Positions 14,369-17,300 of a stretch of 64,000 bases of DNA are shown here, piece by piece. The notes below the pieces were generated by a model that saw nothing but the letters and a program-made list of their open reading frames with translations, was not told where the DNA came from and ran no database searches. The position numbers were made by a program, and so were the translations under genes. Source of the stretch: Periplaneta americana (Eukaryota; Arthropoda; Insecta; Blattodea; Blattidae); assembly GCF_040183065.1 (NCBI RefSeq), contig NC_091120.1:176726488-176790487 (forward strand), in the 5' to 3' direction. The first letter of the stretch is position 1. Each line of letters begins with the position of its first letter.

Positions 14369-17300
14369 GTAAGGAAATTCCCTTTTAACAGTTAAAAATT
14401 ATTAACCCTCCTCTCTCGTACAAATTATAAAACCGAATTCTGTGTATAACATTGCATATCACACTCTTTGTTCTGGTTATTCAGGAGCATCGTGTGAAAT
14501 ACAACCAAAAGTATTCCAATGTCTTCGGCGATGACCAAGAAGCAATAAAAGCTATTGAGAAGTCAGAAATGGAACCAGCATTGGCACAGCTGGTGCAGCG
14601 ATGGCTTGAGAGAACTCCAGGTCTGGAGGCAGATGGGTTCAACTTCTGGGGGAAGTACAGACAAGCCGTTGAAACACTGCTGTTGAAGCAGCGTCAGGCT
14701 GCAGAGGTGAGAACGGGGGCCCTTCACATTTTGTGTCTGAATTTATTGTAGTTAATGTCACATACAAATTGCGGGGCGATTTCTCAGGGCATGCTATGCT
14801 TGCTGGGCAAGCCCAATATTTTCGTAGAATGTGTGTTTCTCAAAATGGCGTTACGTACATTAAAATTTATTTTGATTTTTGGAATATTGTATAGATGTAA
14901 TACCATCCGCAGATTGCACAACGCAAGTATCGCAACGCTTGCTCGTTTCTCGGAGCTACAGGGAAGACGTAGAAATAGCGAGAATATGATGCGCGCGCAA
15001 GTGCCTTCCTCCTTAGTCCGTCCTAGGCGCACATGCTTCTGTTATGTGTTGTTTGAAGCTCTGGTCCGAGGGCTACACCAACGACTATTTAACGTTACAC
15101 AGACCGGTATTGACAGAGGGAATGTGCTGTGATTTGCGAGTGCAATGTAATTGTATGAGCGGAATGCATGTGTTAGCTGCTGCATGTATTATTAATTCTT
15201 AAACATTAATTTGAAGTATTGCAATGAGTTCGGAATTGTGTTACTGAAACCTTATTATTAAATCCATTTTCCCGAAGGACTATTCAAGAGAAGACAGACA
15301 TTATAGAGAATATGTGCGCTCGTTCAGTGCAGCTCAATACAACAATATGCATTGGTTGGCAGGGTCGAAAACTAAATAAACTGTTTTGTTGGCCATGTTT
15401 GTTACTTTTTTTTTTTTTTTTGAAAGACATGTTGGTTCATAAAAGTGTGAATACAATTAATAATTTTATATAATAATAAATTTTCAGTCAAATACACTTT
15501 TCAATTTGTGAGGTCAGATAATCTGCTACATCACAATATTTAGTACGAAGTCACTAATATTTTCGACTTTAAAAAGTCATCTTCAGGTGCATGAGATGCA
15601 AACAATATTTAAAAATAGGTGATAAGTTGATCTAGCAATTAATAACATGGTAAGTAATGCACGTACTGGCATTTACAATTATATAAATTTCGTGCCTCTT
15701 GAGGTAAACTGTATATGGTAAAGCTGAACACTGATGCTAGATTCTCGTATGTATATAAGAGACAAGGAGAAGGCACGGCATGATATTAACCTTATACAAT
15801 TAAAGGCTAAGTATTCTCATTAGATCGTACCATTAAAATTAAATTTGTACAGTTTGATATTAACTATGTTAAAATGTTAAATATAATGTATAAATTTAAA
15901 AGAGATGGAGAAGCTGTGATGCAAATGCTGTTGGTGGGAGAGCACGCAGTCTAATTCGTCGTGGTGAATGCCATAGTTGTATAGTTGTTCAGTTGTTTGC
16001 TTCCAGACAAGGGGGCGTGTTTTAGACTAAAACATGTAACGTCGGGTGAAACACGCCCCCTTGTCTGGATGCAAACAACTGAACAACTATACAACTATGG
16101 CATTCACCACGACGAATTAGACTGCGTGCTCTCCCACCAACAGCATTTGCATCACAGCTTCTCCATCTCTTTTAAATTTATACATTACATTTAACATTTT
16201 AACATAGTTAATATCAAACTGTACAAATTTAATTTTAATGATACGATCTAATGAGAATACTTAGCCTTTAATTGTATAAGATTAATATCATGCCGTGCCT
16301 TCTCCTTGTCTTATATACACACGAAAATCTAGCCTCAGTGTTCAGCTTTACCATGTACAGTTTACCTCAAGAGGCACGAAATTTATATAATTGTAAATGC
16401 CAGTACGTGCATTACTTACCATGTTATTAATTTCTAGATCAACTTATCACCTATTTTTAAATATTATTTTCATCTCATGCACCTGAAGATGACTTTTTAA
16501 AGTCGAAAATATTAGTGACTTCGTACTAAATATTGTGATGTAACAGATTATCTGACCTCACAAATTGAAAAGTGTATTTGACTGAAAATTTATTATTATA
16601 TATAATTATTAACATGTTTGTTACGTTATATCGAACTTCTACATCTGATAAGCGAATATGATCCATGACTCATAATGATTTCATAATTATAAAATAAATT
16701 ATTTATGTGGGTCTGATTATTTTTATTAATTATGAATTATTATATCCTCCCATCTTCCCCAATGAATAAAAGAGCAAGTCTAACTTTCGTGACTAGCATT
16801 CGCCCCTGTAGGCATACATTAGATATTCTTCATTTCATAATTAATTTCAATTTATGTATTCGCAGTAGGATCTCCGCAATGATAGCTACCCCTGACATAG
16901 TGACAATGACTAATCTTGCATTTACTTTCGCAGGCAGAACCTAATGAAACAGTTCGCCAACATAGATTTATGGATTATGAGAAGCGGAAAGAAATATTTG
17001 ACTCCATTTTCGACCCGACAATTCATGCAGCGTTAGTATCACGTGGAGAGAGGAGATTCTCTCACAAAGCAATGCAGGGTGCTATAATGATCACATTTTA
17101 CAGAGATGAGCCCAGGTTCAGCCAACCGCATCAATTGTTAATGCTGCTTATGGATATCGACTCTCTTATCACAAAATGGAGGTGTAAGTATATGTAGGCC
17201 TAATATTTACGGAAGTTCCCGCATTATTATGATACCGGTAGTTATTAAGTTATTATGACTATTACACCTTTACTACGTCATACTACTTTTGACCAATAAA

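What the first reader, a model, noticed from the sequence alone, without database searches (positions are those of the whole stretch)
15406..16612. 1.2-kb near-perfect palindrome with retro-type target duplication and A tail
Two ~565-bp arms around a 26-nt loop are bounded by a 12-bp direct repeat and a T/A run at one end. A palindrome of this size should be unstable; the flanking duplication and A tail suggest insertion by target-primed reverse transcription of an RNA that already was, or became, a snap-back. It lies in TDO intron 2, so the pre-mRNA would form a very long hairpin able to feed siRNA or block splicing.
Basis: partly seen in the sequence, partly recalled or inferred. Interest (0 to 1): 0.7.

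Follow-up and report, generated by a model that had tools for sequence, protein, structure and literature searches.

The report
Palindromic copy of Penelope-like retrotransposon
The 1.2-kb hairpin in an insect gene's intron is a copy of a common jumping element of the Penelope-like kind, which often inserts as two head-to-head copies; its many relatives in the same genome make it possible to test how such elements insert.

Summary
Two arms (15457-16022, 16049-16612; 15 differences in 566 columns) surround a 26-nt centre, and a perfect 12-bp target duplication flanks the insert. It is one copy of a Penelope-like element (PLE) family. An arm search scored 40 places of 621 candidates; longer copies carry a reverse transcriptase and a GIY-YIG endonuclease. 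The 'A tail' is not a poly(A) tail: it is a templated AAA at the reverse-transcription start, 3 nt in 24 of 39 insertions and stretched to 16 here. One arm carries a 34-nt extension, the PLE 'tail'; the other starts at unit position ~34. That asymmetry holds in 30 of 30 arm-anchored insertions whose second unit was seen to its end (one more, L034, is tail-less but starts at 52), and in 7 of 7 pairs of a second PLE family. In five copies the untailed unit is far longer than the tailed one (3018 vs 737; 2422 vs 55 nt), which fold-back copying of one cDNA cannot make. Best model: two cDNAs, primed from both target strands at two RNA sites ~34 nt apart, joined head to head. Effects on TDO are untested. 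The element is ordinary; the copy set is a good test bed for PLE insertion.

The parts
15394..15405 (.). Left copy of 12-bp target site duplication CATGTTTGTTAC
15406..15421 (.). Run of 16 T: stretched form of the templated CAAA (minus strand) at the RT start site
   Evidence: 3 T in 24 of 39 insertions, 4-18 in 15; the tandem junction inside copy L043/L049 has the same TTTG, so it is templated
15422..15456 (-). One-sided PLE 'tail' (G plus 34 nt, unit positions 1-34); present on this arm only
15457..16022 (-). Tailed unit (left arm), pLTR part only, RNA sense on the minus strand; follows unit U to 690, then TTTTAGACT (= U 708-716) at the centre
15561..15586 (-). Hammerhead-like core CTGAAGA-stem II-GAAA in the left arm
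   Evidence: no Rfam hammerhead match
16023..16048 (.). 26-nt centre; mostly continuation of the untailed unit to about U 713-715 in inverted orientation
16049..16612 (+). Untailed unit (right arm), RNA sense on the plus strand, outer end at unit position 35, flush with the TSD
16483..16508 (+). Hammerhead-like core in the right arm
16613..16624 (.). Right copy of the 12-bp target site duplication
18984..20242 (.). Related element (second PLE family, E2): inverted arms, 31-nt tail on the left arm only, 15-bp TSD at 18969-18983 / 20243-20257, hammerhead-like cores at 19101(-) and 20156(+)
18958..20565. Third inverted-repeat element (E3), interrupted by E2; hammerhead-like core at 20426(+); no TSD recognised; ends worked out by hand

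Best explanation
The insert is a 5'-truncated, non-coding copy of a Penelope-like retrotransposon family: two pseudo-LTRs (pLTRs) head to head. Shown: family membership, TSD, a 34-nt tail on one arm only, fixed outer starts of the two units. Inferred: an element protein supplied in trans nicked both strands of the target 12 bp apart. One 3' end primed reverse transcription at the tail (unit position 1, with slippage on AAA giving T16). The other primed at position ~35. Both cDNAs ran to about the same RNA 5' end (~U 711-716), and their 3' ends were joined head to head over a short palindromic sequence. A missing stretch (U 691-707) in the left arm at the centre is either a template skip or a later deletion. 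No host function is inferred; in the intron it is a passive insertion with the capacity to form a long RNA hairpin.
For: Family: 40 scored copies of 621 candidates. RVT_1 (5.1e-13) in the first 300 aa of the L021 open frame and GIY-YIG (7.6e-6) in the L027 open frame; the L021 563-aa frame ends in the same residues as the L027 GIY-YIG frame. Tandem plus inverted units in L043+L049. TSDs: a script found 9-17 bp with at most 1 mismatch in 22 of 25 two-armed insertions whose right end was held; L029 gave 7 bp; L039 and L047 were misplaced by the script and read by eye as 13 and 12 bp. The second unit lacks the tail in 30 of 30 arm-anchored insertions where its outer end was seen at about U 34 (25, L040 and L043, L018 by eye, L041 and L045). 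Second family: 7 of 7 pairs have exactly one tailed arm, one of them (L073) with only a partial 12-nt tail. The untailed unit outruns the tailed one, both outer ends seen, in L021 (U 3018 vs 737), L041 (2203 vs 706), L045 (2564 vs 653), L059/L071 (2074 vs 147) and L058/L081 (2422 vs 55). Of 20 ORF-bearing units fetched, 13 are untailed, 5 tailed, 2 neither. A purified PLE protein cleaves and extends both strands, and its tail lies between two RT start sites (PMC11167929, passages).
Against: [quoted passage not shown] In most arm-anchored copies the tailed unit is the longer one, as a snap-back would give, although that sample was selected for long tailed units. Small hairpin-like sequences at the RNA 5' end in L032 and L046 suggest some self-priming. 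Within-copy arms usually share subfamily variants, so they usually come from the same source RNA, which a snap-back also predicts. Of four untailed ORF-bearing units whose inner side was fetched, two (L050/L070, L065/L082) showed no partner in the stretch held. L034's second unit is tail-less but begins at U 52, and no TSD was evident by eye for L045.
Confidence: 0.75

Rival explanations
1. Snap-back: one cDNA, started at the tail, reached the RNA 5' end, folded back and primed copying of itself; copying stopped 34 nt before the target because the tail was protected. (PMC3846280 proposes self-priming, on an antisense template.)
For: Near-symmetric arms and a short centre here; the tailed unit is the longer one in most arm-anchored two-unit copies; within-copy arms are often each other's closest relatives (8 of 14); 13 of 15 clean joints carry 2-3 bp microhomology, against 19% with 2 or more by chance.
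Against: Cannot make copies in which the untailed unit is much longer than the tailed one (L021, L041, L045, L059/L071, L058/L081), and does not predict 13 untailed against 5 tailed ORF-bearing units. Needs a stop at the same place every time. In this copy the arms differ by a cluster of variants also seen in other copies (U 288, 318, 323, AG insertion), and the right arm ranks only 14th of 53 for the left arm.
Confidence: 0.17
2. A DNA-transposon foldback (MITE with long terminal inverted repeats).
For: Palindromic shape; the same window holds a Tc1-like foldback at 12242-12757 with TA at both ends, matched over essentially its whole length at 40 of 40 scored places. TTAA occurs at both arm ends of E1.
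Against: TSDs are variable and mostly 9-17 bp; tail on one side only; second-arm length differs from copy to copy; long copies carry RT and GIY-YIG.
Confidence: 0.02
3. The palindrome was already present in the source RNA and was propagated as a palindrome.
For: L026 and L031 share the same joint.
Against: L026 and L031 also share TSD and flanks, so they are one insertion duplicated or allelic. Among the other two-unit copies listed I see no shared pair of joint positions.
Confidence: 0.03
4. Assembly or sequencing artefact.
For: Long palindromes are a known artefact class (recalled); no reads were available.
Against: TSD flush on both ends, 15 differences between the arms, and sister insertions at independent loci.
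Confidence: 0.01

Closest known systems
EN-containing Penelope-like elements with inverted pLTRs (Adineta vaga Pen2a etc., PMC3846280, passages seen)
   Same: Inverted pLTRs, head-to-head most often; 31-bp tail on one of them; in Pen2a the inverted pLTR is 37 bp shorter; TSDs of 8-10 bp in several copies; palindromes at the junction; solo pLTRs reported
   Different: Here the copy holds nothing but the two pLTR arms; the region after the hammerhead-like core is non-coding (ATG ACT TTT TAA); the AAA at the end is stretched to 16; the A. vaga elements are described as low in copy number, this family has 621 candidate places
Poseidon of Anolis carolinensis (PAc, PMC11167929, passages seen)
   Same: Hammerhead motif at the pLTR-ORF junction, tail between two RT start sites, both target strands cut and extended
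   Different: PAc is reported in tandem arrays; one tail per insertion is not described in the passages seen, and start sites did not appear to differ between strands
LINE-1 twin priming (recalled, no paper looked up)
   Same: Two cDNAs from the two target strands, joined inside the insert
   Different: Twin priming uses different parts of one RNA and gives a 5' inversion; here both cDNAs cover the same 3' part, giving a palindrome

Membership tests
Penelope-like element (EN-containing) | Reverse transcriptase in autonomous family members | tested here: met
   L021 563-aa frame, RVT_1 E 5.1e-13 on its first 300 aa; that the motifs are of PLE type is judged from memory. Absent from this copy itself.
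Penelope-like element (EN-containing) | C-terminal GIY-YIG endonuclease | tested here: met
   L027 frame, GIY-YIG 26.6 bits against cut-off 22.6; the L021 RT frame has the same C-terminal end
Penelope-like element (EN-containing) | pLTRs in tandem and/or inverted arrangement | tested here: met
Penelope-like element (EN-containing) | 30-40-bp tail on one end | tested here: met
   34 nt here; second unit untailed, starting near U 34, in 30 of 30 arm-anchored insertions seen to that end
Penelope-like element (EN-containing) | Target duplication of variable length | tested here: met
   12 bp here; 9-17 bp in 22 of 25 two-armed insertions by script
Penelope-like element (EN-containing) | Hammerhead ribozyme in the pLTR | tested here: inconclusive
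   CTGANGA..CGAAA core intact in 53 of 59 arms; all 5 cores in the window lie in the three inverted-repeat elements, 0.26 expected on average and at most 2 in 100 Markov simulations; no Rfam hammerhead match; catalysis untested
Penelope-like element (EN-containing) | Start of the ORF overlaps the pLTR | tested here: not met
   In this family the frame from the core's ATG stops after 3 codons; it is met in the second family E2 (37 open codons through the tail). Described in the papers seen, but I do not take it as defining.
Tc1-type foldback MITE | TA target duplication, constant palindrome length | tested here: not met
   contrast

The most novel reading that the evidence does not exclude
EN-containing Penelope-like elements insert by obligately paired priming: each of the two nicked target strands primes its own cDNA, one always at the tail start site and the other always ~34 nt further in, and the two cDNA 3' ends are joined head to head by microhomology. 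Inverted pLTRs are then the normal product of insertion, and palindromes appear whenever both cDNAs stop at the same RNA end.
Probability: 0.5. Interest if true: 0.6.

Novelty: new member of a known kind. Interest (0 to 1): 0.42.

Why it matters
How PLEs insert is an open question in the two papers seen: one proposes self-priming, the other internally initiated RT with both strands extended, and both leave later steps open. Hundreds of candidate insertions in one genome, in at least two families, record both cDNA ends, the joint and the TSD, so the models can be separated by counting. The locus and L027 also show that near-palindromes of 1.2 and 3.4 kb persist in this genome.

Tried and rejected
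Poly(A)-tailed SINE/LINE reading: rejected because the T-run is a stretched templated TTT. DNA foldback: rejected (TSD, RT/EN). Palindrome in the source RNA: no support. I first took this copy's centre as proof that the untailed unit is longer (X 690, Y 715); one search shows TTTTAGACT in the left arm, so a skip or deletion of U 691-707 is as likely, and I do not count this copy as evidence against snap-back. Tailed-longer-than-untailed counts were dropped as evidence because the query selects long tailed units. Rfam: miRNA-like hits at the centre are below gathering scores and follow from the hairpin itself. One viral-contig scan for the core pattern found nothing. Six paper searches listed no title that I recognised as PLEs of this insect; the 2014 hammerhead/PLE paper is not held.

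Rows dropped: L031 (same insertion as L026 by TSD and flanks). Not resolved for a second unit: L012, L015, L017, L020, L035, L036, L037, L046. L034 has a second, tail-less unit that begins at U 52 and is left out of the 30. In one search, L015, L034 and L041 have no G after the T-run and are counted by their T number all the same. Of the 40 hits, 8 lie in copies already held and 12 of the other 32 were not fetched.

Full report
Observation. The palindrome is at the stated place. Arms 15457-16022 and 16049-16612 differ at 15 of 566 columns. The full insert is 15406-16612, flanked by CATGTTTGTTAC on both sides. Read on the minus strand it ends in a 34-nt single-copy extension, a C and 16 A. It lies between TDO exons 14476-14703 and 16937-17194.

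What it is. Within the window alone, three inverted-repeat elements stood out: this one (E1), E2 at 18984-20242 and E3 at 18958-20565, which E2 interrupts. All five CTGANGA-stem-GAAA cores found in 64 kb lie in these three; a first-order Markov model gave 0.26 on average and at most 2 in 100 simulations. E2 has a 15-bp TSD, a 31-nt extension on one arm only, and a reading frame of 37 codons running from the core's ATG through the extension. This matches the described anatomy of Penelope-like elements: inverted pLTRs, a 31-bp tail on one of them, short TSDs, palindromes at the junction (PMC3846280, passages), and hammerhead motifs (PMC11167929, passages).

Genome evidence. The own-genome search (3.23 Gb, 91 contigs) scored 40 places of 621 candidates. 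All 40 are held: E1 in the window and 39 loci (L009-L047). L031 is the same insertion as L026, leaving 39 insertions. L021 carries a 563-aa frame with a reverse transcriptase; L027 carries GIY-YIG frames on both strands because its two units form a 3.4-kb near-palindrome (98.25% over 3371 columns, with a centre of roughly 90 nt). L043+L049 shows the tandem-plus-inverted arrangement. The hits fall on large contigs numbered up to C17; the guess that this is the cockroach Periplaneta is from memory, not a tool result.

Ends. Unit coordinates (U) run from the tail inward along natural copy L027. In the 25 two-armed insertions whose right end was held, the tailed unit begins at U1 and the other at about U34. 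BLAST starts of 26-38 and the outliers L039 (U18) and L047 (U14) come from matches running into the TSD, as the printed ends show; in L010 a start at U5 belongs to an extra internal inverted piece, while the outermost piece starts at U33. L040 and L043 agree after extension, L018 by eye, and L041 and L045 when their far ends were fetched: 30 of 30. L034's second unit is also tail-less but begins at U52. The E2 family gives the same from pairs chosen without the tail: six pairs visible plus E2 itself, 7 of 7 with one tailed arm, L073 having only 12 nt of it. Those six pairs lie in minus-then-plus order, that is, head to head (a capped list).

The A tail. The T-run next to the tail has 3 T in 24 of 39 insertions and 4-18 in 15. 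In L043+L049 the internal tandem junction reads ...CAATGAATTTG|AAAGAC, so TTTG is part of the template. E1's T16 is a stretched version of this, which fits slippage at the RT start.

Mechanism. A snap-back of the tailed cDNA requires the tailed unit to be at least as long as the other. With both outer ends seen, the opposite holds in L021 (tailed to U737, untailed to U3018), L041 (706, 2203), L045 (653, 2564), L059/L071 (147, 2074) and L058/L081 (55, 2422); L034 (591, 1480) points the same way but starts at U52. In L059/L071 and L058/L081 a 10-bp repeat flanks the whole insert (read by eye); none was evident for L045. A snap-back of the untailed cDNA could not add a tail. To avoid the bias, whose query contains the tail, I anchored on the ORF (40 hits of 293 candidates, 32 of them in copies not yet held) and fetched outer ends for the first 20 of these 32: 13 untailed, 5 tailed, 2 neither. 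Two of the 20 (L051, L053) are the two units of one insertion, one tailed and one not. For four untailed units the inner side was fetched: two show a short tailed partner (L059/L071, L058/L081), two show no partner in the stretch held (L050/L070, L065/L082). Two separately primed cDNAs explain the pairs; a purified PLE protein cuts and extends both strands and starts RT at two sites that bracket the tail (PMC11167929). Against a strict rule, that paper saw no apparent difference of start site between strands.

Joints. Among 15 joints placed with 2 or fewer mismatches (L031 dropped), 13 carry 2-3 bp of microhomology and two carry none (L026, L033). Random joints give a mean of 0.79 and 2 or more in 19%.

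This copy. Its right unit follows U to about 713-715. Its left unit follows U to 690 and then has TTTTAGACT, which equals U 708-716. So both cDNAs probably reached ~U 711-716 and the left arm lost U 691-707, or skipped it. The two arms differ by private changes and by a cluster of variants present in other copies (U 288, 318, 323, an AG insertion). The right arm ranks 14th of 53 in likeness to the left. This points to two RNAs or to later gene conversion. Over the 20 copies with both arms of 150 nt or more, 10 show no shared-variant difference between their arms, and in 8 of 14 the own partner is the closest arm, so one source RNA is usual.

Function. The RNA of the insert folds with 551 arm-to-arm pairs. 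Nothing here shows small RNAs, splicing change or ribozyme activity; Rfam gives no hammerhead.

Verdict. The element is an ordinary, non-coding member of a known kind. The interest lies in the copy set, which favours paired priming over self-priming for PLE insertion.

Noticed in passing
12242-12757: Tc1-like foldback: 193-nt arms, 130-nt spacer with a weak DDE_3 match (E 2e-4, below the curated cut-off), TA at both ends; 40 of 40 scored genome places match over essentially the whole palindrome (1920 candidates), so this one spreads as a palindrome, unlike the PLE.
   Followed up: partly
18958-20565: Nested elements: PLE E2 inserted into the left arm of a third inverted-repeat element with its own hammerhead-like core in the loop.
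   Followed up: partly
L028:4600-5290 (oriented): At the joint of the two units a 46-bp piece (U 600-646) is repeated in tandem, 13 extra matches.
   Followed up: no
L010:4561-4716 (oriented; L010 reversed): Between the units lies an inverted piece U 53-5 next to U 707, as if RT had jumped from the RNA 5' end to the 3' end of another RNA.
   Followed up: no
L032 and L046, centre: Short local hairpins at the RNA 5' end (CATGTTT/AAACATG) suggest occasional self-priming.
   Followed up: no
46549-46826: Two adjacent 139-bp copies, 99% identical.
   Followed up: no
23652-23723 (-), 53800-53871 (+): Two tRNA matches inside a pair of inverted 105-nt repeats, perhaps SINE heads.
   Followed up: no
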